NCBI RefSeq assembly: GCF_013340845.1
Contig: NZ_AP020335.1
Coordinates: 744,001 to 808,000, forward strand
Length of the DNA: 64,000 nt
Source: Hydrogenovibrio marinus
GTDB taxonomy: Bacteria > Pseudomonadota > Gammaproteobacteria > Thiomicrospirales > Thiomicrospiraceae
Direction of reading: 5' to 3'
Shown: positions 10,393 through 60,381 of the stretch, in pieces
How positions within the stretch are numbered: position 1 is the stretch's first letter
How the letters are laid out: each line of letters begins with the position of its first letter
Program-made: the position numbers and the translations under genes
The notes under the pieces: model-generated
What the model was told of the DNA's origin: nothing
Database searches by the model: none
Seen by the model: only the letters and a program-made list of their open reading frames with translations

Positions 10393-11387
10393 GGCTTTCC
10401 TGTCATCTCGAGTGCAACCTGAATAGCGTATTGAAAGCTGTTAATGTCTGCTTTCCCTGTGCCGGCGATACCTAGAGCGGTTCCGTGATCAACAGATGTA
10501 CGGACAAATGGCAGCCCTAAGGTCACATTTACGGCTTTGCCAAAACCAAGTGTTTTCAATACCGGTAACCCTTGGTCATGATACATGGCAAGAAAAGCAT
10601 CAGCGGCTTCAAGGTTGGTAGGGCTGAAAATGGTATCAGCAGGCAAGCTGCCGATTAAATCCATACCTTCCTGCTGAAGCTTTTTGATAACAGGGTTGAT
10701 GACGGTAATTTCTTCAGTTCCAAGGTGACCGTCTTCTCCGGCATGCGGGTTTAAGCCCATGATGAAGATTTTAGGCTGTTCAATGCCAAACTGGTTTTGC
10801 AAAGAGTCATGCAGGATGCGGATAACGCTCTCCAAGAGTTCTGCCGTGATGGCATCAGGCACATCACGCAGTGGTAAGTGGGTTGTTACCAAAGGCACGC
10901 GCAGCTGCGGAGTGGCAAGCATCATAACTACTTGTTCTGTATTGGAAGCCTCTGCCAGAAGTTCGGTGTGCCCCGTGAACTTCAAACCAGCTTCATTGAT
11001 AATGCCTTTATGGATAGGACCCGTCACCATGGCGTCAAAGTCATTGTTCATGCACCCTTGAATCGCAGTGCCTAGCATTTGCAAAACATAGTCGGCGTTT
11101 TTGACATTGAGTTGACCGGCAATTGAGGGTTCAGCCAATGGAATATCTATGAGCCTGACCCAACCTGGCAGATTTTTGCTGGCAGGTTGGTTGAAGTCGA
11201 AGTGCTCAATGTTGATTGGCAGTCCAATCTGTTTGGCTCTGTGTTCCAATAAGGCTTTGTTACCAATGACAATGCATTCGACATTCTGGTCAAAACTTAA
11301 GTCTGATTGCGCAAGCTGAACGATTTGTTCAGGTCCAATGCCTGCAGGTTCTCCTGACGTGATGACAATACGTTTGAAGTCAGACAT
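10389..11387 (-). CDS. pdxA: 4-hydroxythreonine-4-phosphate dehydrogenase
   Basis: PdxA oxidises 4-phosphohydroxy-L-threonine in the deoxyxylulose-dependent route to pyridoxal phosphate. The protein (332 aa, normal length) begins with the SGEPAGIGPE motif and has TGPIHKG, the metal-binding histidines in GHTELLAE and MYHDQGLP, and NPHAGEDG. Its ATG shares one base with the surA stop. The gene contains one copy of the ~19-bp repeat family (11155-11178), read here in antisense and encoding the KNLPGWV segment. Confidence 0.96.
   Translation of the reverse strand: MSDFKRIVITSGEPAGIGPEQIVQLAQSDLSFDQNVECIVIGNKALLEHRAKQIGLPINIEHFDFNQPASKNLPGWVRLIDIPLAEPSIAGQLNVKNADYVLQMLGTAIQGCMNNDFDAMVTGPIHKGIINEAGLKFTGHTELLAEASNTEQVVMMLATPQLRVPLVTTHLPLRDVPDAITAELLESVIRILHDSLQNQFGIEQPKIFIMGLNPHAGEDGHLGTEEITVINPVIKKLQQEGMDLIGSLPADTIFSPTNLEAADAFLAMYHDQGLPVLKTLGFGKAVNVTLGLPFVRTSVDHGTALGIAGTGKADINSFQYAIQVALEMTGKP
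11155..11178 (+). repeat. ~19-bp repeat copy 1 (in pdxA)
   Basis: Plus-strand orientation: CTGACC-CAACCTGGCAGATTTTTG, one C short of the core ACCCCAACCTGGCAGATTT. A partial inverted arm CTGGCAGGTTGG follows immediately. Confidence 0.7.
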
Positions 11388-12739
11388 TAATTGATGTTCG
11401 CCTTATCGTTATCAAGGTCGTTCTGTTTGCCAAGGTTGATGTCTATAATGGCGTCATCTTTCAAGCGGCGCAGCCAGATTTCATAAGCTTCGTTGGCCTT
11501 TTTCAGGCGCAAGGTTTCCATCGCTTGTTTACGTTTATTGGCAGCGTTCAAGTCTTGCTGACGCTTGTCTGCAAGGTACAAAATAACCCAACCCTGTTCG
11601 GTAGCAAAAGGAATTGCAGTATGATGCGGTTTTACCCCAGCAATGGCCTTAGCGTATTGCAGTGGCATTTGTTGTATCGTTTGCCAACCGAGGTTACCGT
11701 GTGCGTTGACTGAAGCGGGGATGTCTGAGTATTGTTTATTCAATTTTTTGAAGTCTTCAAGGGATTTGATGTTATTTGCCAGTTCAACCAACGCTTTCGG
11801 TGGAGCAGCTTGTTTTTGCGCATTGTCAGACAGCAAAATAAAGCGGTACAAATGATATTGCTCAACGAGTTTGCTTCCTTTGTCGCGCTTACCAAGCAAC
11901 TTGATGATGTGGTAACCAATCGGGCTGCGGATAATGCCGCTCAATTGTCCAACTTTAAGTGACTCAACGATGCTGGTAAAGAAGGTCGGAATCTGGTCTG
12001 TGGTCAGCCAGCCCAAGTCACCACCGTTCAATGCTTTAGTGCCTTCAGAGTAGCGTACGGCGACCTGGCTAAAGTCTTCACCGTCTTCAAGTTTTTTTAG
12101 GATGGTTTCGGCTTTCTTTTTGGCATCGTCACGTTGAGCAGGTGTGGCAGAATCTGGCAGATTCACCATGATATGGCCGATATGGTATTCGAAGTTGTTT
12201 TGTATCAGGCTCTGACGTTGTAAGTAGTTGTTGATTTCGTCTTCAGTGACTTGTGTTTGGTCCAGTACCTCAACTTGTCTGAGTTTTTGGAACAACATTT
12301 GTTGACGAATGCGCTCACGAAAATGCTGAAATCCGTCAGGCTCAGATAAGTTCAGGCGATCTCTTAGCTCTAGAACGGTTAGATTGTTGCGTTTAGCAAT
12401 GTCTTCAACTTGTGCCAGCACTTCTTCATCCTGAACTTGTATGCCTCGGGATTTGATTCGCTGCATTTGCAGTTTGTCCATGATCATCTTATCCAACACT
12501 TTGCGCTTGAGTTGCTCAAGGTCTGCAATGTGGACATTACGGGCGGCAAGATCCTTTTCGGTTTCCGCAACCTGGCGATCCAGTTCGCTTTTCAGGATGA
12601 TATCGTCGTTGACCGTGGCTACGATGCGGTCAAGCAATTGCCCTTTTTCCGGTTCAGCAAATGAAGAGATTGGAAGGAGTGCGGTCGATGTCAAGACTAA
12701 GACAAGCAGAGTATGTCGCCAAGTGTTTGATAATGTCAT
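11387..12739 (-). CDS. surA: Periplasmic chaperone SurA
   Basis: SurA escorts outer-membrane proteins, including LptD, through the periplasm. The 450-residue protein has a signal peptide ending near SSFA-EPEKG, the N-terminal chaperone domain (about 33-180), two parvulin-type prolyl isomerase domains (about 185-285 and 295-400) and a C-terminal helix. Parvulin features such as GHIMV, GGDLGWLT and GYHIIKL are clear in the first domain. The second is more diverged. It lies 1 base after its major client lptD. Confidence 0.96.
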   Translation of the reverse strand: MTLSNTWRHTLLVLVLTSTALLPISSFAEPEKGQLLDRIVATVNDDIILKSELDRQVAETEKDLAARNVHIADLEQLKRKVLDKMIMDKLQMQRIKSRGIQVQDEEVLAQVEDIAKRNNLTVLELRDRLNLSEPDGFQHFRERIRQQMLFQKLRQVEVLDQTQVTEDEINNYLQRQSLIQNNFEYHIGHIMVNLPDSATPAQRDDAKKKAETILKKLEDGEDFSQVAVRYSEGTKALNGGDLGWLTTDQIPTFFTSIVESLKVGQLSGIIRSPIGYHIIKLLGKRDKGSKLVEQYHLYRFILLSDNAQKQAAPPKALVELANNIKSLEDFKKLNKQYSDIPASVNAHGNLGWQTIQQMPLQYAKAIAGVKPHHTAIPFATEQGWVILYLADKRQQDLNAANKRKQAMETLRLKKANEAYEIWLRRLKDDAIIDINLGKQNDLDNDKANIN

Positions 12740-12740
12740 A

Positions 12741-15143
12741 TTAGAAATCTAGTTTGTTGGTTAAGTATTTTGAAAAAGGTGTTCCGACGGAACTGAGGCC
12801 TTTGAGTTCAATCATGTACTGGATGCCGTAATTATACAAGCCATTTGCCAATTGTGCTTCTTTAACTGACAGCTCACTTGCCCAGCAACAGCTGTCGTAT
12901 CGGATTGCTGAATTGATTTCCGTTTTACGCTCTGCAGTGAAGTCATAGTTCCAATAACTTCCAAGGGTCCATTTATCGTTGATGCGCCAGTTAAACCCTG
13001 TTGCAACGTTTTCTTGCTCACCGGGTCGGTTGTTATTCACAACGGTATTGGTCAGCAAGAACTTAAACCTTGGCGAGAGATCCAGTTTCATGCGATTGTT
13101 GGCATTCGTCAATTCGTAATTGTGGCGTGAATATTGGCTGGTGGAGGCAAAGCTGAATTTACCAACAGTAAGCCCAAGGTTCAGGTAGTAGTCCGATACG
13201 CGACTGGTATCAATGCTGGTGCCTGTAAGTTGAACCTTGCGGTCATCCAAATAAAAAATCTGTCCAATACCTGCTTGGGCAAGAGGGGTTCCGTCCGCTG
13301 TCAGGAAACGTGTGGTTAAAGCGGTAGAGACCTGATTGGTGTCGCCGATACGGTCATAACCTGAAAAACGGTTATAGGAAAACAGGTTGCTGAAGTCCAA
13401 GCTTTGTACTGCCGTGTCGAATACAGGAATATTGCTTTGGTTTTGGTAAGGCACATACAGGTACTGGACTTGAGGTTCAAGCGTTTGAATAAAGTCGTTT
13501 GAACCGAAGCTGAAGTTACGTTCGAATGTTAGCCCGCCATTAAGCGCATATTGAGGTACGGTGATGTCATGTTCATTTGCGCCAGTGGTGTTGTAGCCAT
13601 TGTTTTGCATCGTATAGTGTACTTTGTTGGCAACCACTTCCGCTTTTAAATGGCCATAGGGCTTAACGAGCGTGTAATCCACGCTCGGTGATAAATAGGA
13701 TCGCTTGGCTTCCGGTTTTTGCGCAAGAGAGGAGGAAACTTGAAAGTCGGTAGCCTCCGCTATGATGTTGGTGTTGATGTTTTTTAACGCGCCTTTATCA
13801 AAATTGTGAAAGTAGCTCATGCCGATTTCAGGCTTTTTCTCATAGTTGTATGGTGCGTCTTTTCTCAGTCTCAAGTAATTCAACATTGAAATATGAGAGC
13901 TGAAGTTCTGGTTTTGATAAGCCAGATTAACGTGTCGTTCAGTCGTTGTGACTGTGTCGAGTGTGGTGTCAACCGGAACGTCTGCATAGAAGCTTTTGTC
14001 CGATACTTCACGCCAAGAGATGTCGCTGTTCAATCCTTCGGCCCAGTGTTGCTGAGCGGTCAATTGAGCATCCCATCGATCGGTTACTGGGTTGGTGTGC
14101 TGTACGTTGCCACTACTGTCTAGGTAAGCAATGCCGTCTTTTGCAGTGAGATTATCTCGTAACCAATGAGTGGTAAGTGTCGCGCTGTGGTTAGGTTGTA
14201 GATAACGGAATTCATTACCAAGTACGGTGCCTCGCTTGGACATCTGCATTACGGTCAAGGTGTCGTCGTAATTTGGTGCAATGTTGAAGTAATAAGGAAT
14301 CGCTAAATAGGACTCTGGTGAAGTTTGGTTGATGGATTGTTGTGTACCGAATGTAGGGAATAAGAAACCACTGGCACGGTTATCCATCGGAAAGTTGATG
14401 TAAGGCGTATAAAAAACCGGCAAGGTCTGAAAATACAGAACAGCATTTTTGCCGTAAATGCGGCGCTTGGCATCGTCTATTTTCAGGTGGCTGAAATCCA
14501 GCTCCCAGTCGTATTTTTTATCTTGCGGGGCGCTTTTCCCTTGCCAGAAAAAGTGTGTGAGCTTGCAGGTTGTGAAGTTGGCGTCATCTAAGTTGGCAAG
14601 GCGATCCTGTTGGTCGATGGAGACGGTTTTCGCTGTACCATGTGCTCGAGTATCGGTAAATTGGTATTGCGATTCATTGATGGTGGCAGTTTTATCGCTT
14701 TGGTTTAACGTAGCGGTGTTTCCAGTTAAGATAATGTCGCTACGATGGAGTTCTACTTGTCCAAAAGCATGAGCGGTTTGCTTGATGCGATTGAATAGCG
14801 CTTCGTTTGAGATCAAAATACTGCCTGGGCGCTCTATGACAACGTTTCCAAGTAGTTTATAGTCATCAGGCGAAGTTTGGATTAATTCATCAGCGGAAGC
14901 ATTATCCTGAATGTCGGCACTAGGAATAGGGCGAGGCGTTGCAATCCACGCAGGTTTGCAGGATTCTTGTTGTGCGGGTGATGTGTCGCAGCTAGTGGAA
15001 GATGTGGTTTCGGTTTTAATTTTTGTTTGCTGAATGGATTCATTTGCGTACGCTGGAGACAGGATTCCCCACAAGCTAAATGCAAAACTTAGCGCAAAAA
15101 AAAATGACCCTATTCGTAGAAGAAAACGAAGATGAATTGACAT
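12741..15143 (-). CDS. lptD: LPS-assembly outer-membrane protein LptD
   Basis: LptD is the beta-barrel that, with LptE, inserts lipopolysaccharide into the outer leaflet. The 800-residue product has a signal peptide ending in AYA near residue 34, then a Cys-containing linker. The N-terminal OstA/LptA-like jellyroll domain (about 90-220) and a long barrel domain rich in alternating aromatic strands follow. The disulfide system looks conserved: cysteines in TSCDTS and ESCKPAW, one in TTCKLTHFF and a vicinal pair in YDSCCWAS near the C-terminus. It is the first gene of the operon and is divergent from amgK across 75 bases. Confidence 0.96.
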   Translation of the reverse strand: MSIHLRFLLRIGSFFFALSFAFSLWGILSPAYANESIQQTKIKTETTSSTSCDTSPAQQESCKPAWIATPRPIPSADIQDNASADELIQTSPDDYKLLGNVVIERPGSILISNEALFNRIKQTAHAFGQVELHRSDIILTGNTATLNQSDKTATINESQYQFTDTRAHGTAKTVSIDQQDRLANLDDANFTTCKLTHFFWQGKSAPQDKKYDWELDFSHLKIDDAKRRIYGKNAVLYFQTLPVFYTPYINFPMDNRASGFLFPTFGTQQSINQTSPESYLAIPYYFNIAPNYDDTLTVMQMSKRGTVLGNEFRYLQPNHSATLTTHWLRDNLTAKDGIAYLDSSGNVQHTNPVTDRWDAQLTAQQHWAEGLNSDISWREVSDKSFYADVPVDTTLDTVTTTERHVNLAYQNQNFSSHISMLNYLRLRKDAPYNYEKKPEIGMSYFHNFDKGALKNINTNIIAEATDFQVSSSLAQKPEAKRSYLSPSVDYTLVKPYGHLKAEVVANKVHYTMQNNGYNTTGANEHDITVPQYALNGGLTFERNFSFGSNDFIQTLEPQVQYLYVPYQNQSNIPVFDTAVQSLDFSNLFSYNRFSGYDRIGDTNQVSTALTTRFLTADGTPLAQAGIGQIFYLDDRKVQLTGTSIDTSRVSDYYLNLGLTVGKFSFASTSQYSRHNYELTNANNRMKLDLSPRFKFLLTNTVVNNNRPGEQENVATGFNWRINDKWTLGSYWNYDFTAERKTEINSAIRYDSCCWASELSVKEAQLANGLYNYGIQYMIELKGLSSVGTPFSKYLTNKLDF

Positions 15144-15218
15144 CCAATTAAAAATCGTGAATTATGAATTAAACGCTTATTCTAACCGAGATTACTCTCA
15201 GTACGACCAAAGATTTGC

Positions 15219-16259
15219 ATGACGGAACGTTTTCAAAAATTACTCACCTGGCTCGAGCAGCTAAATTCCTTCGATAAAGATGTCTTTACAATGCCGGAAC
15301 CGGCATCGAACGATGCCAGTTTCAGGCGCTATTATCGTATTCAATTAACTCAAGATGTTGACACTTATCGACAGGGGCAGACGTTCATTATTATGGACGC
15401 ACCGCCTGAGCATGAAGATTGTCGTCCGTTTATCAAAGTCTCTCATGATATGACTGCGATGGGTTTGAACGTCCCTAAAGTGCTTGAGCAGGATCTTGAA
15501 TTGGGATTTTTGCTGTTGACAGATTTGGGGGCGGATACTTATGCGTCTAAACTCAATGACTCGACGGTGGATTACTTGTATCGAGATGCGATGCGCGCGT
15601 TAATCAAGTTGAACAGCTTGGGTGAACCATACGCAAAAGACTTGAAGCCTTATGATAGCCAGTTGTTAACCACCGAAATGTCACTATTTAGCGATTGGTT
15701 GGGCGAAAAACACCTTGGGTTGGGTATGAGTCAATTTGAAAAAATAGAGTGGCAGAATACTCAAGATGTTTTGATTAAATCTGCACTGCAGCAACCACAA
15801 ACTTATGTGCATCGCGACTACCATAGTCGAAACCTGATGGTGTTGGCAAAAGGCAATCCGGGGGTTTTGGATTTTCAGGACGCGGTTCATGGTCCGTTAA
15901 CCTATGATGCGGTTTCTTTGTTTAGAGATTGTTATGTACGCTGGCCTGCGGAGCAGGTTCGTGAATGGATTCGTGAGTATTTCCTGAGATTGGTGGAAAT
16001 TAGACTGTTGTCTCGTGATGAGTGGAAAGGTTTTTCAAAGGCGTTTGATTTGATGGGGGTGCAGAGACATTTGAAGGCATCCGGTATTTTTGCACGGCTT
16101 TATCATCGCGATGGCAAAGACGGCTATCTTGCCGATATTCCCAACACGCTTGATTACATTATCGAAGTGGGAAGAGAGCACTCGGAGATGCGCTTTATTG
16201 TTGATTGGACAGCAGAAAAAGTTTTACCGAGATTGATGGAAATCAATAAAGCATCATGA
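15219..16259 (+). CDS. amgK: N-acetylmuramate/GlcNAc anomeric kinase (AmgK-like)
   Basis: This aminoglycoside-phosphotransferase-fold kinase most likely phosphorylates N-acetylmuramic acid at C1, feeding muropeptide sugar back to UDP-MurNAc. The 346-residue product has the APH catalytic motif HRDYHSRNLM and the metal-binding DFQDAVHGP. The next gene encodes a MurU-like nucleotidyltransferase, and AmgK plus MurU is the defined recycling pathway in Pseudomonas. Divergence from lptD across a short spacer is the usual arrangement. The symbol rests on this context. Confidence 0.9.
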   Translation: MTERFQKLLTWLEQLNSFDKDVFTMPEPASNDASFRRYYRIQLTQDVDTYRQGQTFIIMDAPPEHEDCRPFIKVSHDMTAMGLNVPKVLEQDLELGFLLLTDLGADTYASKLNDSTVDYLYRDAMRALIKLNSLGEPYAKDLKPYDSQLLTTEMSLFSDWLGEKHLGLGMSQFEKIEWQNTQDVLIKSALQQPQTYVHRDYHSRNLMVLAKGNPGVLDFQDAVHGPLTYDAVSLFRDCYVRWPAEQVREWIREYFLRLVEIRLLSRDEWKGFSKAFDLMGVQRHLKASGIFARLYHRDGKDGYLADIPNTLDYIIEVGREHSEMRFIVDWTAEKVLPRLMEINKAS

Positions 16260-16308
16260 GAGCAATCATGATGGCGAGATTAGGCAGAAATTGGTGGTAA
16301 ATTAATAG

Positions 16309-17010
16309 ATGAACAGGCGTGCAATGATTTTGGCGGCGGGTAGAGGTAATCGCTTAAGACCTTTGACGGATTCCATTCCTAAGCCTTTGGTGACAGTGGG
16401 TTCGTATTCCTTGATTGAACATCACTTGCATAAATTCTGCCAGGTTGGGGTCAAGGAAGTTGTCATCAACCATGCGTGGCTTGGAGATAAGATTGAATCT
16501 GCATTGGGCGATGGTTCTCGCTATGGTGTCAATATCTCCTATTCCTCAGAGCCAGAAGGTGGTCTGGAGACGGCGGGTGGTATTTTACAGGCGTTGCCGA
16601 TGTTATCAGATGGGCAGCAGCCTTTTTGTGTCGTCAATGGGGATGTTTTTACCGATTATCCTTTCGATAAAATCTCTCAGTTGACATTGGCCTCTGGCAT
16701 AATGGCGCACCTGATACTGGTACCCAATCCTGACTTTAAATCAGAAGGTGATTTTGGTTTGGAACACGGTATGGCTACCTTGGATAAGACCTATACCTTT
16801 TCAGGGGTGAGTGTGTTGCATCCTGCATTGTTCGACGGGTTTGAAGTTGGTCGGTTGGCGCTGGGAGGCATTTTGAAGCAAGCCATTGCCGATTGCAAAG
16901 TCACCGCAGAACTCTATGAGGGTTATTGGAGCGATGTGGGCACGCTAGAAAGATTAAATAAAACAAGACAAGATTTTGAATCAAATAAAATAAAAATGGA
17001 GAAACTATGA
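16309..17010 (+). CDS. murU: MurNAc-1-phosphate uridylyltransferase
   Basis: MurU converts MurNAc-alpha-1-phosphate and UTP to UDP-MurNAc, bypassing MurA and MurB. The 233-residue protein carries the nucleotidyltransferase signature MILAAGRGNRLRPLT followed by PKPLV, the GGLETAGG substrate loop and VVNGDVFTD with the metal-binding Asp. A YWSDVGTLERL motif near the end is typical of sugar-1-phosphate nucleotidyltransferases. It lies 49 bases after amgK. One copy of the ~19-bp repeat family (16432-16454) lies inside it, in a different reading frame from those in pdxA and sufD. Confidence 0.92.
   Translation: MNRRAMILAAGRGNRLRPLTDSIPKPLVTVGSYSLIEHHLHKFCQVGVKEVVINHAWLGDKIESALGDGSRYGVNISYSSEPEGGLETAGGILQALPMLSDGQQPFCVVNGDVFTDYPFDKISQLTLASGIMAHLILVPNPDFKSEGDFGLEHGMATLDKTYTFSGVSVLHPALFDGFEVGRLALGGILKQAIADCKVTAELYEGYWSDVGTLERLNKTRQDFESNKIKMEKL
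16432..16454 (-). repeat. ~19-bp repeat copy 2 (in murU)
   Basis: Minus-strand orientation: CTTGACCCCAACCTGGCAG followed by AATTT, one base from the core. It is read in murU as KFCQVGVK. Confidence 0.7.
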
Positions 17011-17267: not shown

Positions 17268-17406
17268 AACATCATAAAAAGACGATAGTCTCGGATAAAG
17301 AAATTCTCTGGAAGTAACTTGGGGATTCGGTTGTAATTGCATTATTAGTGTTTAATAATATGGCAGAATTCTTAAGTTTTAATCAATCTGAATGAAAGGA
17401 TAGAAA

Positions 17407-26163: not shown

Positions 26164-27578
26164 AATGGATGCTTAACGATTTGATTGTGGCAACAGGCGG
26201 TGAGTTAAGTACTCAGTCTGCAGACAAAGAGGGTGTCGGCTTCGATTTTGTTTCTACCGATAGTCGTGAGATGTCGACAGGCGGGTTGTATATCGCGGTT
26301 AAAGGTGCAAAATTTGATGGCCATGCGTTTGTGTCTCAAGCGGTGACGCAAGGCGCTTCGGTCGTATTGGCATCCGAGCCAGTCGAAACGTCGGTGCCAG
26401 TGGTTTTGGTAGCGGATACGCGAATTGCATTAGGGCAGTTTGCCGCTTGGCATCGTAAGCAGATGCCGCTGAAGAAATTGATTGCTGTTACCGGAAGTAA
26501 TGGGAAAACCACGTGTAAGAACATGATTCAACATTTGCTTTCCAAGCAAGCGAAAGTGTTGGCGACACAAGGGAATCTTAATAATGATTTTGGTGTGCCG
26601 AGAACATTGCTGCAGTTAACTGACGAACATGAGTATGCGGTAGTGGAAATGGGCGCAAACCACCACAAAGAAATTGAGTATTTAACCCAGCTTGCAAAGC
26701 CTGATATTGCCATAATTACGCTGGCAGCTGGAGCGCACCTAGAAGGTTTTGGCTCTCTGGAAGGGGTTATTCACACCAAAGCTGAAATATTGTCGGGTTT
26801 GCAGGATAAAGTCGGTGTGGCAGTATTGAATACGGATTCACCGGGCTTTGATATTTGGCAAGACATGTGCCGCGAGCGAGAACTGTCTGTACTGACGTTT
26901 GGCTCCACAGCGATTGCCGATGTACATTATGAGCAGTTTGAACAATCGTCCGATGTGATTGAGTTTGATGTTGTTTCTACCGCGGATAAAGTGATAAACC
27001 AAGGCAAGTCGCATGTTGTGGCGCCCATGCTGGGAGAGCACAATGCGATGAACGCCTGCGCCGCGCTGACGGCAGTGATGGCATGCGGTTTCAAGTTGGA
27101 AGTCTTGACCCCCAACCTGGCAGATTTTTGTGGGGTTTCAGGACGCCTGCAAAAAGTATCGTTACCCAATGGTATTTTGATTGACGACAGCTATAATGCC
27201 AACCCGGATTCCATGAAGGCTGCATTAAGAACACTTGTTGCGCTTCCCGGTAAAGGGTTAGCTTGTTTAGGCGCCATGGCAGAGATAGGGGAAACTTCAG
27301 CTTCCGCTCACGCTGAAGTGGCAAGTTATGCGAAGTCATTGGGTGTGTCTTATCTACTGATTTACGGTGAAGCGGCAAAGCCGATGATTGATGCTTTCGG
27401 CGAGGGCGCTTTTTGGTTTGAATCTCATCAGGCATTAACGGATAAAGCGATTGAATTGATAGAAAAAGACAGTCTTAATCATTGCCTAGTGAAGGGGTCT
27501 CGTTCAAGCAAAATGGAAACCGTTACCCAAGGCATTTCAGAATACTTTAACAATCATTTAAAACCACAGAATACTTAG
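26160..27578 (+). CDS. murF: UDP-MurNAc-pentapeptide synthetase
   Basis: MurF attaches D-Ala-D-Ala to the UDP-MurNAc tripeptide. The protein (472 aa) has the ATP-binding loop AVTGSNGKTTCKNM, the NLNNDFGVP segment, the VVEMGANHHKEI metal/ATP region and the DDSYNANPDSM motif that identifies MurF. It overlaps murE by 4 bases. A copy of the ~19-bp repeat family lies at 27105-27130, within the LTPNLADFCGV stretch. Confidence 0.96.
   Translation: MKWMLNDLIVATGGELSTQSADKEGVGFDFVSTDSREMSTGGLYIAVKGAKFDGHAFVSQAVTQGASVVLASEPVETSVPVVLVADTRIALGQFAAWHRKQMPLKKLIAVTGSNGKTTCKNMIQHLLSKQAKVLATQGNLNNDFGVPRTLLQLTDEHEYAVVEMGANHHKEIEYLTQLAKPDIAIITLAAGAHLEGFGSLEGVIHTKAEILSGLQDKVGVAVLNTDSPGFDIWQDMCRERELSVLTFGSTAIADVHYEQFEQSSDVIEFDVVSTADKVINQGKSHVVAPMLGEHNAMNACAALTAVMACGFKLEVLTPNLADFCGVSGRLQKVSLPNGILIDDSYNANPDSMKAALRTLVALPGKGLACLGAMAEIGETSASAHAEVASYAKSLGVSYLLIYGEAAKPMIDAFGEGAFWFESHQALTDKAIELIEKDSLNHCLVKGSRSSKMETVTQGISEYFNNHLKPQNT
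27105..27130 (+). repeat. ~19-bp repeat copy 3 (in murF)
   Basis: Plus-strand orientation: TTGACC-CCCAACCTGGCAGATTTTTG, the core with one extra C. Confidence 0.7.
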
Positions 27579-37628: not shown

Positions 37629-40115
37629 ATGAGTATCAAAACAAAATTAATGAGCATCAAAACAAGACTGCTGGTCGGTGTGTTGGGTGCTATTTTCTTT
37701 TTATTAATTTCAAATCTAATTGCGCAATATGTTTTTAGACAGGCAACTGACACTACCAGTCAAATAACCAATGCGGCTGATCAAAAGCTAGAGATGCTCA
37801 ATCAAATTGAGATTCTTTCGGGTTATAGGGCCGCGTATACTCGCGATTTAATCATTTATGATGATAAAAAACTTCTTCAGAATACAAGGGAGAAGTTGAA
37901 GGTGACAGCAAGTGATATTGTTGACGCATTCAATACGCTAGATAGGATGCAATTGTCCAGCCAGGAAAAAGACTATTTAGAAAAAATTAGGCAAAGTGTA
38001 GTCAGTGCAAATCAGTCATTTGGTAATTTTACTTCGGCCATAGACGAAGGGTTTTCTGATGAAGCCAAACATATTCTGGTTAACGAGTTCAATCCAAAAT
38101 TTATTGCTTTTTCCAATATTGTTACCAATTTCAAAAGTTACGAGGAGAAGCAGAACACTGAGCTAGCTAATCAACTCGCATCACAGCAAGACTTTGGTAA
38201 TAAGGCTCTGTGGTCGTTACTTGCGTTGAGTGTAATTATTTTCTCAATAGTTGGTTCGATTTCCGCAAAAATCTTGTTGGCTCCAATTTATGCCATGCGA
38301 GATACCATGGCAAAAATTTTGGAAACAGGGGATTTGAGTCATCGTGTTCCTATTTATTCTAAGGATGAAATCGGACAAAGTGCGCAATCCATTAATGAGC
38401 TTTTGACGACGATTAATGGTGCCACAAATGATGTTAAGTCGGTTATGACTGAAATTTCTAATGGTACGTTCAAAGAGAAAATTGAGAACGAATACAAGGG
38501 TGATTTTGAGTTACTCAAAAAAGGCGTTAATAGTTCGTATGATCAAATTTACAATATGGTTGTTATGTTAAGGGGGACTGCTTCCAATTTGAGAAATGGT
38601 TCTTTAGAGTCTATATATAACGAACATGTAGAAATGAAAGGGGATTACGCAGCTGTCATTACAGATATCAAGGTAGCAATGGATGCTATAAGATTCACGG
38701 TTGATGATATTTCTCGAACGTTGGATAGTCTTTCAAAAGGTGATTTCTCCAAGCGTGTGGAAGTTGAAGCTATGGGTGAGTTTTCAAAACTCAAGAATGC
38801 TATCAACAGTACTATTGACGGTCTTGATCAATTCGTTGGTGAGGTTGTCACCGTTCAAAGCAAGATTAGTGAAGGAGATCTCACAGATTATGTTAGAAAA
38901 GATTATTCAGGAAAAATGGCTGCACTAAAGGATAGTCTAAATTTTTCAACTCAAAACATGGCATGCATGATCGCAAAAGTTGGTGCTGTCACTAAACTGG
39001 TCTCTGGTGAAGCAAGCACAATCGCAAGTAGCAGTGCCACCGTGTCTGACCGTATTCAAGAGCAGACAATAGCGCTTGAAAAGACTTCCACGCAAATGGA
39101 AGAAATGACAAAAATTGTTCAGCAAAACGCTGAGGTGGCTTCCAATGCAAATGCTATGACGCAGCAGGCACAAGTAAAATTGACTTCTGGCGTTGAAATT
39201 ATGAAGAGTGCTTTGAAGTCGATGGATCAGATGACTGAGGCAAGTAGAAAGATCAATGATATTATTTCTATTATCGACAGCATTGCTTTTCAAACTAATT
39301 TGTTGGCCTTAAACGCAGCTGTAGAAGCGGCAAGAGCGGGTGACCACGGTAGAGGCTTTGCAGTTGTTGCAGGTGAAGTCCGTAGTTTGGCTGGGAAGTC
39401 ATCGGATGCCGCCTCTGAAATTAAAAAGTTAATTGAAAATTCAGTCAATATTAGTGATGAGAGTGGGCGCTATGTCAAACAGACTAGTGATGCATTGATT
39501 GAAGTAAATCATTCAATAAAAGAAATGTCAGGCATGATTTCTGAAATTGCTTCTGCAAGTCGTGAACAAGCAGATGGTATAGCTAGAGTTAATGAGTCTA
39601 TTTTAGAAATGGAGTCTAGCACTCAGCAAAATGCTGGTTTGATAGAGGAATCTGCTTCTGGAAGCCAAGATTTATTCAGTCAATCTGAACAGCTTTTACA
39701 TATGGTACAGGGTTTTAAAGTAGATGAAACTATGTCGAAAAGAATTGCTAGAAATCAGAGTTCACATATCGCCCAGCATTTTGAAAAGATGATAGAGGCT
39801 CATCGGTCTTGGAAAAGTAAAATTCGTGGTTTTATAAATGGTATGGATATTGGTGTTACCTATGAGGTTGCAACTGACCATACTGCCTGTATTTTAGGGA
39901 AATGGTACTATGGCGAAGGCCAAAGTTTGATGCATATGCCTTTGATGCAAGAGCTTGGACAAGAGCATATGGAAATGCATCAGGCCATTAAGAAAGTAAT
40001 GGATGCTAAAGAGATTGGCGACGACAGTCTAGTTGCAGAAGGTTTGACGCAAATCGATAAGCAATCTGAAAAAGTGGTGGCAATTCTAGAGCAGTTGGAA
40101 GACGAAGTTTCCTAA
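37629..40115 (+). CDS. Chemoreceptor with C-terminal zinc-binding (CZB) domain
   Basis: This is an 828-residue methyl-accepting protein. It has a first membrane helix (about 15-32), a periplasmic helical domain, a second helix (about 193-215) and several HAMP-like segments ([22 protein letters not shown]). The signalling tip is [31 protein letters not shown]. The last 120 residues match the CZB pattern: H in HRSWKSKIR, the Cys in [11 protein letters not shown], and later EHMEMHQAI, residues known to bind zinc or sense oxidants such as HOCl. The first 14 codons are a near-perfect tandem duplication of 7 codons. The gene looks AT-richer than its neighbours. Confidence 0.92.
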
Positions 40116-40195: not shown

Positions 40196-40217
40196 GACCC
40201 CAACCTGGTAGATTTTA
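40196..40217 (+). repeat. ~19-bp repeat copy 4 (intergenic, CZB receptor/znuB)
   Basis: Plus-strand orientation: GACCCCAACCTGGTAGATTT, the core with C to T at one position. It lies between convergent genes, after the chemoreceptor terminator. Confidence 0.7.
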
Positions 40218-40243: not shown

Positions 40244-41047
40244 TTAGAGTGGCTTTCTGATGAAACTTGCCAAGAAAATCAAGCTGGCAACCACTACGAT
40301 TGATGGTCCGGCTGGCGTGTCCCATTGCATGGAAAACAGTAGTCCAAGCACGATCGATAGCAATGCGAACAGGTAGCTGATGTAGAGCATTTGTTCTGGC
40401 GATTTTGACAGCCTGTGTGCTGCAGCTGAAGGAATAATCAATAATGAGGTAATCAACAGAATACCGACAACCTTGATTGCCAGTGCGATCAACAGCGCCA
40501 ACAAAAGGGTATACATCAGTTGAACCGATTGTGTACAAACCCCTTCAACCTGTGCTAATTCAGCATTCAAGGTAATATTGAGTAGGTCTTGCCAATAACG
40601 AAAAAAGTAAAGTACGACAGCGACCAGTAGTGCAGACATCAAGATGATATCTGTCGTGTTTATACTAAGAATGTCGCCGAAGAGATAGCTCATGATGTCA
40701 ATCTGGATATGATTCTGGAAGCTGAGAATTACTAGCCCCAAAGCCAATGTACTGTGTGCCAGTAGCCCTAGAAGCGTGTCTGAGGATAGAGCAGTTTTTT
40801 TCGATAAAAAGAAAATCGATAAGGCAATTACCACAGAAGTCAGCATCACCGCCAGTGTCAGATTAAGCTGCAAGAGTAGCCCTAGGCTAACCCCCAATAA
40901 TGCCGAGTGTGCCAAGGTTGCGCTGAAATAGGATTGGCGCTGCCACACCATAAAAACACCTAGCGGTGTAGCGATAGACGCGACTAATAAGCCGCCCAAT
41001 AATGCAAGAACCAGAAACTCAGGTGGGTGCAGTAGAATATCAATCAT
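40244..41047 (-). CDS. znuB: Zinc ABC transporter permease ZnuB
   Basis: ZnuB is the inner-membrane channel of the zinc uptake ABC system. The 267-residue product is highly hydrophobic with about eight helices and belongs to the ABC-3 family. A GVFMVWQRQSYFSATLAHSALLG segment early in the protein is typical, as is the SLLIIPSAAAHRL block later. It overlaps znuC by 4 bases. Zinc rather than manganese specificity is inferred from the linked His-rich binding protein. Confidence 0.93.
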   Translation of the reverse strand: MIDILLHPPEFLVLALLGGLLVASIATPLGVFMVWQRQSYFSATLAHSALLGVSLGLLLQLNLTLAVMLTSVVIALSIFFLSKKTALSSDTLLGLLAHSTLALGLVILSFQNHIQIDIMSYLFGDILSINTTDIILMSALLVAVVLYFFRYWQDLLNITLNAELAQVEGVCTQSVQLMYTLLLALLIALAIKVVGILLITSLLIIPSAAAHRLSKSPEQMLYISYLFALLSIVLGLLFSMQWDTPAGPSIVVVASLIFLASFIRKPL

Positions 41048-46035: not shown

Positions 46036-47337
46036 ATGGCGGCTGTGAATCCAATAAAACCTAGAAAACAAAGTCCAGTAGCACAAAAAACGATTGAGCA
46101 TTACGTTGGCTTGTCTCAAAGCCTAAATGCCAAGACGCAAAATCAGATGTTATCGGCTAAGCGTTTAGATGCCCAGAAAAAACTTCAGGCACTTGGGTTG
46201 CCGATGCGTCGTGATGAGGATTGGCAGTACACTTCTCTGAACCACTGGATGCAAACCGCTTTTGAGCAAAATCTACCAGGTTGGGGTGAGGTTAGCCAAG
46301 ATCAACTGAAAGCTATTTTGCCAACATTCGAAACGCACCGCTTCGTTTGGGTTGATGGTGTCTTCTCACAAGACTTGTCATGTGATTCTGGTAGTTTGCC
46401 TTCGGGTTTGACGGTAGAGAATGCGGAAATCACCAATGCCGATTTAGTGGACTCCAATCATGCTTTTGAATTGCTGCATGATATGTTGGCTGAAAGTCGC
46501 ACTAAAATCCACGTGCAAAAAGGGGCGGCAATCGAAAAACCGGTCGAGTTGGTTTACATACAGACTCTGCCAAAAAGTCTTGCTACCTTGAGCCTAGATG
46601 TTCAGGTTGAAGAGAATGCGCAGCTGAGTTTGATTCAACAGGTGGTTTCTTTTGCTGATGAGTCGGTTTGCATCAACGGTGTGTTGCAAATGGAGTTGGC
46701 CGCGCATGCTATTTGTAAGCAGTATGTGGTTCAGGATTTGAACATCAACGACTTTTATTTCAATAACCAACACGTCCGTCAGCAAGCTTCGTCTGTATTT
46801 GATACCTTGTATGTCGGTTTGGGAGCAGAAGTGTCTCGCCATCAAAATACGGTGAACCTGTGCGGAGAGTACGCTGAGGCTTCTCAAAACACCATCGCTT
46901 TTGGTAAAGGTGAGCAAACAATTGACTCACGCACTGATACGCAACACCTTGTACCGCACTGTAACAGTCAGCAGCTACACAAGTTTGTACTGGATGATCA
47001 AGCAAGAGGCGTGTTCAACGGCATGATTTACGTCGCAAGAGGTGCGCAAAAAACGGATGGTCAGATGGATAACAAGAATTTGTTATTGTCGAATGACGCC
47101 AAAATGGATACTAAGCCTCAGCTTGAAATCTATGCGGATGACGTGAAGTGTTCGCATGGTTGTGCGTCTGGGCAGATTGATGAAAACCAAGTTTTCTACT
47201 GTCAGGCACGTGGTATACATTATCATGATGCGGTTCAACTTATTACCAAGGCATTCTTGTTAGAGCCTTTGGATAATGTATCGAATACTGCTATCCGTGA
47301 CTGGCTAATGCAACGCGTAAGTAAGTTGCTAGCTTGA
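46036..47337 (+). CDS. sufD: Fe-S assembly protein SufD
   Basis: SufD is the partner of SufB in the scaffold complex and is required for iron entry. The 433-residue protein has the N-terminal helical region with MRRDEDWQYT and the beta-helix domain with DDVKCSHGCASGQIDENQVFYCQARGI near the C-terminus, containing the conserved histidine. A copy of the ~19-bp repeat family (46268-46290) encodes its QNLPGWGE segment. Confidence 0.95.
   Translation: MAAVNPIKPRKQSPVAQKTIEHYVGLSQSLNAKTQNQMLSAKRLDAQKKLQALGLPMRRDEDWQYTSLNHWMQTAFEQNLPGWGEVSQDQLKAILPTFETHRFVWVDGVFSQDLSCDSGSLPSGLTVENAEITNADLVDSNHAFELLHDMLAESRTKIHVQKGAAIEKPVELVYIQTLPKSLATLSLDVQVEENAQLSLIQQVVSFADESVCINGVLQMELAAHAICKQYVVQDLNINDFYFNNQHVRQQASSVFDTLYVGLGAEVSRHQNTVNLCGEYAEASQNTIAFGKGEQTIDSRTDTQHLVPHCNSQQLHKFVLDDQARGVFNGMIYVARGAQKTDGQMDNKNLLLSNDAKMDTKPQLEIYADDVKCSHGCASGQIDENQVFYCQARGIHYHDAVQLITKAFLLEPLDNVSNTAIRDWLMQRVSKLLA
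46268..46290 (-). repeat. ~19-bp repeat copy 5 (in sufD)
   Basis: Minus-strand orientation: CTCACCCCAACCTGGTAGAT followed by TTT, with the same C to T variant as copy 4. Confidence 0.7.
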
Positions 47338-53766: not shown

Positions 53767-53782
53767 ATTGCATTTCTTTCGC

Positions 53783-53827
53783 GGCGAATTTTTCTGTAGC
53801 CAACATTACAGTATGGTAAAATTCGCC
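53783..53827. repeat. Nested inverted repeat between ftsA and lpxC
   Basis: GGCGAATTTT (53783-53792) and AAAATTCGCC (53818-53827) are perfect 10-base arms. Inside them CTGTA (53794-53798) and TACAG (53807-53811) form a second stem. It may act as an ftsA terminator or as an lpxC leader structure. It lies exactly where ftsZ would be in most relatives. Confidence 0.65.
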
Positions 53828-53874
53828 TCTTATCTACTCTAGCGGTCCGATCTCAACTAGGAGCAAAAAGCGGC

Positions 53875-54795: not shown

Positions 54796-54815
54796 AGCCC
54801 GAAAAAGCTCTTAAA

Positions 54816-54838
54816 CCTTGGTGTTCTGCCAAGGTTAA
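54816..54838 (+). terminator. Hairpin after lpxC
   Basis: AACCTTGG and CCAAGGTT form an 8-bp stem with a 7-base loop, 20 bases after the lpxC stop. It lacks a clear T run and is a weak candidate. An extended -10 element TGC-TAGAAT (54890-54895) downstream may drive secA. Confidence 0.5.
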
Positions 54839-55014
54839 CATCTTGTTACTTCTCAAGATTATCTCATCATTTTTTGCATGGACTTATGCTAGAATAAGCC
54901 TCATTTTTAATCTTATTGAAACTTTAGCGTGCTTAGATGAATCAAGCCTGATCGCTAGGCGATAACAAAAAGATTCAAACACAATTTAACGCTTAAACCT
55001 GGACTGTATTACGA

Positions 55015-57756: not shown

Positions 57757-57793
57757 TTCTCGCTATTATTTAATTCAGAAGAACACAAACCCG

Positions 57794-57828
57794 AAAGCCC
57801 ACTTGTAATTGATACGGTGGGCTTTTTT
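57794..57828 (+). terminator. Terminator of secA
   Basis: AAAGCCCAC and GTGGGCTTT form a 9-bp stem with a 14-base loop followed by TTT, 37 bases after the stop codon. It is a standard intrinsic terminator. Confidence 0.85.
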
Positions 57829-57865
57829 AGTTTAGCTATTTAAATATTTGTTACTAGGAAGTGCT

Positions 57866-59074
57866 ATGAGCGCAAATACGGTTATCCATCCTGTTCAAGG
57901 TGTTTACGCTGGAACAACTTGTGCCAAGATTAAAAAATCCGGTAAGGAAGATTTTGTCTTGTTCCAATTCAATGATGCAGCGGTCACGGTCGCAACTTTT
58001 ACGCTAAATGCATTTTGTGCCGCTCCTGTTACGTTGGCTAAGCGTCATCTTGCTGCAAAAGCGCCGAAAGCATTGGTTATTAACAGTGGAAATGCCAATG
58101 CGGGTACTGGTAAACAAGGCATGATGGATGCCGAACAAACCTGTGCTTGGGTTGCAAATGAGCTAGGTTGTAGTGCAGACGAGGTTTTGCCTTTTTCAAC
58201 AGGTGTTATCGGTCAGAATTTGCCAATGGATAAAGTGCAGCAAGCCATTCCTATGGCCGCTGCCAATTTAGCGATTGATGGTTGGGATGGTGCGATGAAA
58301 GGCATCATGACAACCGATACCGTTGAAAAAATGTACAGTGTAAAAGTCACTATTGGTGGGCATGAAGTGACTTTTACCGGGATTGCTAAAGGTTCTGGAA
58401 TGATTCATCCAAACATGGCAACGATGCTGGGCTTTGTGGCAACTGATGCAAAAATCACTAAAGCCTGCTTACAGCAAGCCATGACGGATGCGACAAATTT
58501 GTCGTTCAACCGCATAACGGTTGATGGCGATACCTCAACTAACGATGCCTGCACTTTGACGGCAACGCAGCAAGCCGATATGCCAACTATCGAAGATTGC
58601 AACTCAATGGCCTATCAAGAGTTTGCAAATGCGCTGAATCATTGCATGATGACCTTGGCTCAGAAAATTGTAAGAGATGGGGAAGGTGCTACCAAATTTG
58701 TCGCAGTTGAAGTCGAGAATGCGCGTTCTTCTGAAGAGGCATTGAAAGTTGCTCATGCAGTAGCGTTATCGCCATTGGTGAAAACGGCATTGTTTGCGTC
58801 TGACCCTAACTGGGGCCGTATTTTGGCTGCAGTAGGTCGTGCGGGAGTTGAAGACTTTGATATTGATGCCATTCAAATCTATTTGGGTAATGTGCTGTTG
58901 GTAGAAAACGGTGGACGTGCGGATTCTTATACGGAAGAAGCTGGTCAAGCTGTGATGAACGAAACCGATATTACGATTAAGATTATTTTGAATCGTGGAG
59001 AAGCGGGTGAAGTGGTCTGGACAACTGATTTCTCTTACGACTACGTGAAAATCAATGCCGAATATCGGTCATAA
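57866..59074 (+). CDS. argJ: Ornithine acetyltransferase / N-acetylglutamate synthase
   Basis: ArgJ recycles the acetyl group in arginine synthesis by transferring it from N-acetylornithine to glutamate. The ATG at 57866 has AGGAAG upstream and begins MSANTVIHPVQGVYAG; an in-frame start at 57848 has no ribosome site. The self-cleavage and nucleophile site is in HPNMATMLGFVATDA, with NSGNANAGTG, the GVIGQNLPMD oxyanion segment and SDPNWGRILAAVGRAG. It probably forms alpha and beta chains after cleavage at the Ala-Thr bond. It converges with hisC. Confidence 0.96.
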   Translation: MSANTVIHPVQGVYAGTTCAKIKKSGKEDFVLFQFNDAAVTVATFTLNAFCAAPVTLAKRHLAAKAPKALVINSGNANAGTGKQGMMDAEQTCAWVANELGCSADEVLPFSTGVIGQNLPMDKVQQAIPMAAANLAIDGWDGAMKGIMTTDTVEKMYSVKVTIGGHEVTFTGIAKGSGMIHPNMATMLGFVATDAKITKACLQQAMTDATNLSFNRITVDGDTSTNDACTLTATQQADMPTIEDCNSMAYQEFANALNHCMMTLAQKIVRDGEGATKFVAVEVENARSSEEALKVAHAVALSPLVKTALFASDPNWGRILAAVGRAGVEDFDIDAIQIYLGNVLLVENGGRADSYTEEAGQAVMNETDITIKIILNRGEAGEVVWTTDFSYDYVKINAEYRS

Positions 59075-59117
59075 TCGAATTTAGATCGGACTTAAACTTG
59101 GTTTAAGTTCCCATCAT

Positions 59118-59137
59118 AAATCTGCCAGGTTGGGGTC
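59118..59137 (-). repeat. ~19-bp repeat copy 6 (argJ/hisC, left arm)
   Basis: Minus-strand orientation: GACCCCAACCTGGCAGATTT, exact core. Confidence 0.75.
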
Positions 59138-59145
59138 GTTAATAC

Positions 59146-59167
59146 TTGACCCAACCTGGCAGATTTT
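59146..59167 (+). repeat. ~19-bp repeat copy 7 (argJ/hisC, right arm)
   Basis: Plus-strand orientation: TTGACC-CAACCTGGCAGATTTT, one C short of the core. It is inverted relative to copy 6. Confidence 0.75.
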
Positions 59168-59188
59168 CTTATTTAAACATCTGGATAA

Positions 59189-60250
59189 TTAAGCATTTAC
59201 GATGTCGGATAACGCATCGCACAGTGCTTGGTTCTCTTGATCTGTCCCAATACTGATTCTCAAATACTGATCGATGCGCGGCAATTTGAAGTGACGCACG
59301 ATAATCGCTTTGTCACGAAGTTGTTGTGCAATATCTACTGCATCCAAGTGCTTGTGCTTGGTGAAGACAAAGTTGGCAGCCGAAGGCACCACTTCAAAGC
59401 CATTTTTGGTGAGGAATTCAACCAGGTTTTCACGTGTATGGATGATTTTCTCACAGCAGCCGTCAAAATAAGCTTGGTCTTCAATGGCCGCCACACCTGC
59501 CGCTAAAGCTACACGATCCATCGGGTAAGAGTTAAAGCTGTTTTTAACGCGCTCCAAGCCTTCAATCAAGTGCGATTGCCCCATGGCATAACCAATGCGT
59601 AAGCCAGCCAAAGAGCGAGACTTGGAGTAGGTTTGCACCACCAGTAGATTTGGATAATCTTGAACCAACGATACCGCTGACTCGCCACCGAAATCAATAT
59701 AGGCCTCATCCACAACGACAACAGAATTTGGGTTGTTTTCCAGCAGGGTTCTGATGGCGTCTAGTGCCAGCACTCTGCCTGTCGGCGCGTTTGGGTTCGG
59801 GAAAATGATACCGCCGTTTTCAATACGATAATCAGCAGGGTCGATTTCAAACTGTTTGGTTAGCGGTACGGTTTGGTAGTTGATGCCGTAAAGCCCGCAA
59901 TAAACAGGGTAAAAACTGTAAGTAATGTCTGGAAACAGCAAAGGTTTATCATGCTTGAGAAGTGCCATGAAAATGTGCGCCAAGACCTCGTCCGAACCAT
60001 TGCCGATGAAAACTTGACCTTCCTTTAAGCCATAGTGGTTTTGCAGCGTCGTTTTTAAAGCATCCGAGTTAGGGTCTGGGTAAAGTCTTAATCTCTCGTC
60101 ATTTACCGATGCAATTGCCTCATACACTTTCTGCGATGGTGGGTATGGATTTTCGTTGGTATTGAGTTTAACAAGGTTGTCGACTTTCGGTTGTTCACCC
60201 GGTACATAAGGCGTTAGGGTGTGAACAAGATCGCTCCAAAATTGACTCAT
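59189..60250 (-). CDS. hisC: Histidinol-phosphate aminotransferase
   Basis: HisC makes histidinol phosphate in histidine synthesis with PLP. The 353-residue class II aminotransferase shows [38 protein letters not shown] and the PLP lysine in [16 protein letters not shown], with the phosphate-binding arginine near the end in [12 protein letters not shown]. It is not in a his operon here. A GAGAAC ribosome site precedes the ATG. Confidence 0.95.
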
Positions 60251-60360
60251 AGTGGTTCTCTAGTATTTTATCTTTATGGTTTGGTGGCTGTTCGCCTGAA
60301 AAAACAAGGAACAAAAAGAGTATTTTACTGTAAAAAACGAATTTCTAGCAGTGAAAACCT

Positions 60361-60381
60361 ACCCCAACCTGGCAGATTTTT
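60361..60381 (+). repeat. ~19-bp repeat copy 8 (upstream of Nudix-ThiE gene)
   Basis: Plus-strand orientation: ACCCCAACCTGGCAGATTTT, exact core. It lies between divergent hisC and the Nudix-ThiE gene. Confidence 0.75.

What the first reader, a model, noticed from the sequence alone, without database searches (positions are those of the whole stretch)
11155..60381. Eight copies of a ~19-bp repeat in genes and intergenic DNA, resembling a DNA-uptake or other genome-wide signal sequence
The core ACCCCAACCTGGCAGATTT (0-2 differences, one-base C-run variation) occurs at 11155, 16432(-), 27105, 40196, 46268(-), 59118(-), 59146 and 60361. Four copies are inside conserved genes (pdxA, murU, murF, sufD), on both strands and in different reading frames, so protein conservation cannot explain them. 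One pair is inverted and forms a terminator. In Haemophilus and Neisseria, DNA-uptake sequences show exactly this combination: genic and intergenic copies, both strands, inverted pairs used as terminators. The ~8-kb spacing is sparser than those systems, so a chi-, KOPS- or protein-binding-type signal or a remnant of a small mobile repeat is also possible.
Basis: partly seen in the sequence, partly recalled or inferred. Interest (0 to 1): 0.8.

Follow-up and report, generated by a model that had tools for sequence, protein, structure and literature searches.

The report
Genome-wide DNA uptake-like signal with dialects
A sulfur-oxidising marine bacterium and many of its relatives carry hundreds of copies of a short DNA word, each lineage with its own spelling, that looks like the 'self' label used by bacteria that take up their own kind's DNA; this has been described so far in only two other bacterial families.

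Summary
The repeat is real and genome-wide: 9 copies in the window (0 in shuffles) and 206+173 within 2 mismatches in the 2.49-Mb Hydrogenovibrio-type chromosome (reversed control 2+0). It is an 18-bp, non-palindromic word, CCCAACCTGG(C/T)AGATTTT, without conserved flanks, nearly strand-balanced, in genes and enriched between genes, often in inverted pairs.

The strongest result is that the word has dialects: the same word in a close species, CCCAGCCTGG(C/T)AGATTTT in a third, and CCAGGCCTGGnnRWTTT, CCCGGCCTGTTGAGTTTT, ACCACCCCTGGCGATTTT or ACCGGCCGGTAA in others. Orthologous sites carry each genome's own dialect: one murF site shows four dialects without a gap, and 6 of 6 retained sites show the same A-to-G switch. 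For genic copies this rules out a mobile repeat and argues against protein constraint.

ComEC, ComEA and MSHA-type pilus genes are present. Best reading: a DNA uptake sequence system in a third bacterial family (0.77); uptake is untested. Against: no PilQ, no identified receptor, acidic pilins, lower density than classical systems (recalled), two relatives with both genes but no detected word. No report was found in an open-access library.

The parts
11159..11176 (+). copy 1, CCCAACCTGGCAGATTTT, inside pdxA (gene on - strand)
   Evidence: G001 identical, G004 CCCAGCCTGGTAGATTTT at the same site
16432..16449 (-). copy 2, CCCAACCTGGCAGAATTT, inside murU (gene on + strand)
   Evidence: G004 CCCAGCCTGGCAGAATTT at the same site
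   Evidence: kept in G001, absent in G004
27111..27128 (+). copy 4, CCCAACCTGGCAGATTTT, inside murF (same strand as gene; reads P-N-L-A-D-F); four dialects at this site across relatives
40199..40216 (+). copy 5, CCCAACCTGGTAGATTTT, convergent intergenic (ORFs 37629-40115 + and 40244-41047 -)
   Evidence: kept in G001, absent in G004
46268..46285 (-). copy 6, CCCAACCTGGTAGATTTT, inside sufD (gene on + strand)
   Evidence: G004 CCCAGCCTGGCAGATTTT at the same site
59117..59134 (-). copy 7, left arm of the inverted pair between argJ and hisC (convergent)
   Evidence: in G004 the dialect-2 word, aligned with two gap positions
59150..59167 (+). copy 8, right arm of the inverted pair; hairpin about -33 kcal/mol as RNA on either strand, terminator-like
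   Evidence: in G004 ..CAAGCCTGGTAGATTTT with one inserted base; terminator scan did not call the pair
60363..60380 (+). copy 9, CCCAACCTGGCAGATTTT, divergent intergenic between hisC and a Nudix-family gene
   Evidence: G004 has CCCTGCTTGGCAGATTTT

Best explanation
The word is a DNA uptake sequence: a species-specific 18-bp label recognised by the DNA-uptake machinery of naturally competent cells, so that they preferentially import DNA of their own kind. Copies arise by point mutation at tolerant positions and are kept or spread because tagged fragments are taken up and recombined more often (uptake-biased drive). When the receptor's specificity changes, copies are respelled one by one at the same sites, giving dialects. 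Inverted pairs are reused as terminators. Shown: number, dispersal, near strand balance, dialects, same-site switching, inverted pairs, ComEC and ComEA genes, MSHA-type pilus genes. Inferred: that the cells are competent, that uptake depends on the word, that the pairs terminate transcription, and that the receptor is a surface pilin, probably of the MSHA-type system.
For: Genome count 206/173 against control 2/0. 18-bp logo with no flank information. A dialect in each of the 11 genus members held (own genome included) and in other genera of the family; reversed-pattern controls at most 5 per genome. One murF site carries four dialects without gaps, in 10 of 24 aligned genomes. Of 9 window sites aligned to G004, 6 still match the word within two mismatches and all 6 have A in G000 and G in G004; 10 of 10 such rows for G001 vs G004, which overlap the former. 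38 of 65 sites intergenic where 8.8% is non-coding; 16 of the 38 in convergent gaps. Neighbours within 60 bp: 26 against 1.7 expected in the first 1.41 Mb, all inverted. Leading/lagging 171 vs 208, p 0.06. ComEC 333 bits and ComEA 88 bits, over their cut-offs; MshL-like secretin and GspE/PilB/MshE-like ATPase. No dispersed word above simulation in samples of G016 (no ComEA match), G012, G018 and G017 (20-100 kb). The longest gap in the first 1.41 Mb holds NiFe-hydrogenase genes, a region type reported as horizontally acquired in strain SP-41 (PMC6501319, passages). PMC12616744 (passages) calls Neisseriaceae and Pasteurellaceae the only families known to do this.
Against: No uptake or transformation evidence; no paper reporting competence in these genera appeared in the listings seen. 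No PilQ over cut-off in the 34 family genomes searched. No GspH/FimT-type domain in G000. The three prepilin-like proteins found, and a less clear fourth beside them, have acidic soluble parts (pI 4.7-5.5), unlike an electropositive ComP. G012 and G018 have ComEC and ComEA over cut-off but no dispersed word in 80 and 100 kb. G044 has 483 loose-pattern matches although its ComEC matches lie in two pieces 37 kb apart; G008 and G048 have a word but ComEA below cut-off. Density, 152 per Mb genome-wide, is below that of classical uptake sequences (recalled). At murF 14 of 24 genomes lack a copy, among them genomes with a dialect of their own. Two of nine window sites are absent in G004 and one has an inserted base. 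+ copies exceed - copies in the second part of the chromosome (108 vs 73, p 0.011). Some gap as long as the hydrogenase one is expected by chance with p 0.30.
Confidence: 0.77

Rival explanations
1. A chromosome-organising or repair protein (nucleoid, segregation, recombination or methylation factor) binds the word inside the cell; the dialects follow changes of that protein.
For: Dispersed, 18 bp, nearly strand-balanced. The dialects of G002-type, G005/G006 and G046 genomes have a palindromic core, as dimeric binders prefer. Most dialects contain CCTGG, a Dcm-type site (recalled).
Against: No restriction to one part of the chromosome in the listed sites. Enrichment in convergent gaps, inverted pairs and same-site respelling are the described marks of uptake sequences. 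The dialects of G000/G001, G004, G044 and G008 are not palindromic. Samples from four genomes, one of them without a ComEA match, show no dispersed word.
Confidence: 0.15
2. A Chi- or KOPS-like oriented signal for recombination or chromosome translocation.
For: Genome-wide, genic and intergenic.
Against: 171 leading vs 208 lagging copies, assuming the record starts at the origin; such signals are strongly skewed and about 8 bp long (recalled).
Confidence: 0.03
3. A remnant of a small mobile repeat, or a terminator cassette copied around the genome.
For: Inverted pairs; some pairs with fixed spacing of 58-59 or 130 bp enclose a recurrent hairpin unit (L163-L168).
Against: 24 of 65 sites lie wholly inside genes; orthologues with other dialects or without the word align without gaps at murF; flanks show no conservation beyond 18-20 bp; 20 of 65 sampled sites are in close pairs, the rest are not.
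Confidence: 0.03
4. Codon or amino-acid preference in conserved genes.
For: Genic copies favour two frames encoding PNL(A/V)DF or NLPGW.
Against: 38 of 65 sites are intergenic; both strands and five of six frames; at murF the amino acid itself changes N/S/G with the dialect.
Confidence: 0.01

Closest known systems
Neisseriaceae DNA uptake sequence (DUS) and its dialects (PMC3630211, abstract and passages seen)
   Same: Many dispersed copies; lineage-specific dialects; inverted pairs linked to terminators; a short invariant core (CTG there; CTG also occurs in six of the seven dialects here).
   Different: Different sequence; longer (18 bp against up to about 13); lower density (recalled); no receptor identified; another class of bacteria; PilQ not found.
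Pasteurellaceae uptake signal sequence (USS) (PMC12616744, passages seen)
   Same: G/C-rich core followed by a T-tract: extended Hin-USS AAAGTGCGGTCAATTTT, here CCCAACCTGGCAGATTTT; more than one dialect; terminator pairs (PMC1852404, passages).
   Different: Different core (GCGGT there, CCTGG here). The predicted receptor PpdA/ComN was not searched for as such; one prepilin here has only a weak N-terminal match to a prepilin-peptidase-dependent-protein model.
HIP1, the highly iterated palindrome of cyanobacteria (recalled)
   Same: Many copies of a palindromic word; three dialects here have a 10-bp palindromic core.
   Different: HIP1 is 8 bp; the window's word is not palindromic and carries a directional T-tract.
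Chi, KOPS, matS, parS (recalled)
   Same: Dispersed signals made by substitution.
   Different: Short and/or skewed by strand or region; this word is long and nearly balanced.

Membership tests
DNA uptake sequence systems in general (DUS/USS kind) | Short word dispersed over the genome far above chance, in genes and between genes, both strands | tested here: met
DNA uptake sequence systems in general (DUS/USS kind) | Inverted pairs at gene ends, used as terminators | tested here: inconclusive
   Pairs and convergent-gap enrichment met; strong hairpins in the two pairs folded; termination not tested and the simple scan did not call the window pair
DNA uptake sequence systems in general (DUS/USS kind) | Lineage-specific dialects | tested here: met
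DNA uptake sequence systems in general (DUS/USS kind) | Host has DNA-uptake genes | tested here: inconclusive
   ComEC and ComEA present; MSHA-type pilus genes and a Tad-like locus; no PilQ over cut-off; DprA, PilT and others not searched
DNA uptake sequence systems in general (DUS/USS kind) | Preferential binding or uptake of DNA that carries the word | not testable with these tools
   needs an uptake assay
Neisseriaceae DUS | GCCGTCTGAA-type sequence with CTG core | tested here: not met
   Sequence differs; only a CTG is shared in six of seven dialects
Neisseriaceae DUS | ComP receptor pilin | not tested
   No ComP search was made; the prepilin-like proteins looked at are acidic
Pasteurellaceae USS | AAGTGCGGT or ACAAGCGGT core | tested here: not met
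   Core is CCAACCTGG
Chi/KOPS-type oriented signal | Strong leading-strand skew | tested here: not met
   (origin assumed at record start)
Small mobile repeat (MITE/REP) | Inserted unit with ends, mainly intergenic | tested here: not met
   Gapless orthologous genic copies at murF; no element beyond 18-20 bp

The most novel reading that the evidence does not exclude
This family of sulfur oxidisers holds a third, independently evolved self-DNA uptake system, with at least seven dialects in one family, read not by a PilQ-type pilus with ComP but by an MSHA-type pilus with an unknown receptor; the receptor's shifts have respelled many sites per genome at fixed positions, so that uptake specificity acts as a reproductive barrier in free-living chemolithoautotrophs.
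Probability: 0.5. Interest if true: 0.9.

Novelty: new variant of a known kind. Interest (0 to 1): 0.83.

Why it matters
Uptake sequences are described from two families (the two-family statement is in PMC12616744), both largely animal-associated (recalled). A third case in free-living marine autotrophs would give an independent test of how and why such sequences evolve (uptake drive against benefit of self-DNA), shows dialect change at fixed orthologous sites, and supplies many related genomes with different dialects for finding the receptor by covariation. It would also give a practical handle (tag the DNA) for genetics of these carbon-fixing sulfur oxidisers.

Tried and rejected
Mobile repeat: rejected for genic copies by the gapless murF alignment. 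Fixed-spacing pairs (58-59 and 130 bp) were followed as a possible element; in L163-L168 they are motif pairs around a hairpin unit present once or three times in tandem; the seventh stretch of that set, L169, has no such unit. They are a compound structure, not the source of the word.

Chi/KOPS: rejected on strand counts. One search uses the first 100 listed sites of each strand, not the full list.

'Genus members without the motif': at first eight of ten relatives seemed to lack it; all have other dialects, so absence by pattern alone is weak. This also weakens the competence-gene association. Of 34 family genomes, 22 have a detected word (20 or more matches to the dialect-3 or loose pattern, or dialect 6 or 7 found); 20 of these 22 have ComEC and ComEA over cut-off (G008 and G048 miss ComEA; G044's ComEC is in two pieces). 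Ten have no detected word; 2 of these 10 (G012, G018) have both. Fisher p 0.00016. G015 and G017 were left out as ambiguous; the genomes are related; only G012, G016 and G018 of the ten were sampled without a preset pattern, and G017's sample was only 20 kb.

PilQ and GspH/FimT searches gave no receptor pathway. The pilin query matched most family members with and without the word, so it does not single out a receptor. Scans of viral contigs found 5 and 9 stretches with exact words; not analysed further. Matches of dialect 3 that are symmetric are counted on both strands. A paper search with the letters of the word listed only unrelated papers among the 15 of 955 shown. Structure prediction, fold search, RNA-family search and the annotated phage/plasmid/E. 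coli collections were not used.
Full report
NAMES USED. G000 is the window's genome; G001 onwards are unnamed relatives. Dialects: D1 CCCAACCTGGYAGATTTT (G000, G001); D2 CCCAGCCTGGYAGATTTT (G004); D3 CCAGGCCTGGnnRWTTT (G002, G003, G007, G009, G010 and other genera); D4 ACCAGGCCTGGTnATTT (G005, G006); D5 CCCGGCCTGTTGAGTTTT (G044); D6 ACCGGCCGGTAA (G046); D7 ACCACCCCTGGCGATTTT (G008).

WHAT IS THERE. The 19-mer occurs nine times in the window with up to 3 mismatches, against 0 in 100 shuffles. Over the whole G000 chromosome (2,491,293 bases, one contig) CCAACCTGGCAGATTT with up to 2 mismatches occurs 206 times forward and 173 reverse; the same pattern read backwards occurs 2 and 0 times. About 1.3 are expected under equal base use. 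In 464 kb (window plus 20 evenly spaced 20-kb stretches) 65 sites with at most 2 mismatches give the logo (C)CCCAACCTGG(C/T)AGATTTT: 18 strongly conserved positions, one of them two-fold (C 74%, T 26%), and flanks with little information. The genus is Hydrogenovibrio by inference: the nearest relative, G001, has the contig length of Hydrogenovibrio sp. JE_KL2.

WHERE IT LIES. By a simple ORF caller, 24 of 65 sites are inside genes, 3 overlap an end and 38 are intergenic, although 91.2% is coding; of the 38, 16 are in convergent gaps that make up 13% of intergenic DNA, 18 tandem and 4 divergent. Genic copies use five of six frames, mostly those that read PNL(A/V)DF or NLPGW. Both strands are balanced among the listed sites of the first 1.41 Mb (98 and 100); the rest has 108 and 73, p 0.011; leading against lagging 171 and 208, p 0.06, taking the record start as origin. 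Of 198 listed sites in the first 1.41 Mb, 26 neighbour pairs lie within 60 bp where 1.7 are expected, and all 26 are inverted (13 each way). The pair at 59117-59167 folds to about -33 kcal/mol on either strand; the simple scan did not call it a terminator.

DIALECTS. The same search in 36 relatives found the word in G001 (216/199) and in G004 (196/154); of the G004 copies listed, all but two have G where G000 has A. The eight other genus members gave 0-4 matches. Counting words in raw stretches showed why: G002, G005, G006, G007 and G010 have CCAGGCCTGG words, and CCAGGCCTGGnnGTTTT with up to one mismatch occurs 169-707 times (both strands) in G002, G003, G005-G007, G009 and G010, and often in other genera (for example G013 159/145, G019 129/107), with at most 2 matches in each of 21 genomes of the class outside the family. 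G005 and G006 prefer ACCAGGCCTGGT. Further dialects are D5 in G044, D6 in G046 (40 in 100 kb) and D7 in G008 (8 sites in 35.7 kb). The loose pattern CCNRRCCTGNNNRNTTT over 62 genomes of the order (all one family, seven genera) gives at least 50 matches in 30, 10-49 in 8 and fewer than 10 in 24, with controls of at most 5 per genome; two of the 24 (G008, G046) have other dialects, and most of the other 22 were not sampled. Symmetric D3 sites are counted on both strands; after removing these, densities are 116-195 per Mb in G002, G007, G009 and G010, against 125 per Mb in G000 by the same pattern.

THE SAME SITES ARE RESPELLED. In a codon alignment of murF from 24 genomes, one site reads CCC AAC CTG GCA GAT TTT in G000 and G001, CCC AGC CTG GCA GAT TTT in G004, CCA GGC CTG Gnn nAn TTT in G002, G003, G007, G009, G010 and G013, and CCC GGC CTG TTG AGT TTT in G044, without gaps; the other 14, among them the D4 and D7 genomes, lack it there. 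The encoded residue changes N, S, G with the dialect. Over the stretches in hand, 9 of 10 aligned sites are kept between G000 and G001 (at most one change in 16 positions) against 48.5% of background 18-mers. Between G000 and G004 4 of 9 are kept so strictly (1.3 expected); 6 of 9 match the word within two mismatches (one of them, 59117, with gap positions counted as mismatches), and all 6 have A in G000 and G in G004; 59150 has an inserted base in G004 but still reads AGCCTGGTAGATTTT; 25035 and 40199 are absent. G001 against G004 gives 10 of 10 rows with A to G, overlapping these sites and counting pdxA twice, out of 13 aligned.

MACHINERY. G000 has ComEC (333 bits, cut-off 190) and ComEA (88 bits, cut-off 53). 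Its type IV pilus genes are of MSHA type: an MshL-like secretin (248 bits, cut-off 250), a GspE/PilB-like ATPase with an MshE-related domain and a GspF/PilC-like protein. A Tad-like locus is at 560-568 kb (named from the translations, not from a family search). Three prepilin-like genes and a less clear fourth lie at 2035.7-2039.2 kb; their soluble parts are acidic. No PilQ over cut-off in the 34 family genomes searched. GspH/FimT-type domains were found in 3 of these 34, G011 (below cut-off), G012 and G018 (just over it); the last two are the genomes with ComEC and ComEA but no detected word, which may be chance or may mean a different, unspecific uptake route. The association between a detected word and both genes over cut-off is 20 of 22 against 2 of 10, with the caveats given under Tried and rejected. 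G016 (no ComEA), G017, G012 and G018 show no dispersed word above simulation in 20-100 kb.

FOREIGN DNA. The longest of 168 gaps in the first 1.41 Mb is 861,281-912,911. The 20-kb stretch sampled in it codes for NiFe hydrogenase and HypD, the kind of region described as horizontally acquired in strain SP-41 (PMC6501319, passages). For that stretch alone zero sites has p 0.002, but some gap so long is expected with p 0.30. The second gap holds ribosomal-protein genes, where constraint is the likely reason.

READING. A long, nearly balanced, dispersed word made by substitution, with inverted pairs and dialects respelled in place, matches what is described for Neisseria DUS (PMC3630211, abstract and passages) and Pasteurellaceae USS (PMC12616744, passages; PMC1852404, passages), and no other kind I know. 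An intracellular binder with changing specificity remains possible. I found no report of such words in these genera in an open-access library (listings); subscription papers are not covered.

Noticed in passing
L163-L168 (G000 183,088; 298,465; 481,450; 555,898; 534,660; 591,329): Motif pairs 58-59 or 130 bp apart enclose one or three tandem copies of a hairpin unit like GCACTCGCCGCCC...GGGGTAAGGCGAGAAA; a similar unit is frequent in G001 stretches.
   Followed up: partly
G004:C1:937685 and G000:C1:1094834: The only exact dialect-1 copy listed for G004 (a dialect-2 genome) lies about 60 bp before the comEC match; G000 has a copy at the corresponding place. Possibly an imported allele.
   Followed up: no
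L215 (G012), L216 (G018): The two family genomes with ComEC and ComEA but no detected word are also the only two of 34 with a GspH/FimT-type pilin domain over cut-off.
   Followed up: no
L058-L060 (G005): 12-mers such as CACGCAGGCGGC (19 times) and GTGACGGTTAAC (11 times) in 60 kb, possibly a CRISPR or other tandem array.
   Followed up: no
G044:C1:50689-51309 and 88072-89325: comEC matches in two separate pieces about 37 kb apart in a genome with 483 loose-pattern matches: competence may have been lost recently, or assembly or rearrangement split the gene.
   Followed up: no
G017:C23:7260, C69:199 and 232, C111:5955: A genome of genus g2 without a detected word of its own has four exact copies of the G044 dialect, two of them as a close inverted pair; perhaps imported DNA.
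   Followed up: no
L233-L237 (for example IMGVR_UViG_637000325_000001): Five viral contigs carry one exact dialect-1/2 word each; not examined whether in host flank or phage DNA.
   Followed up: no
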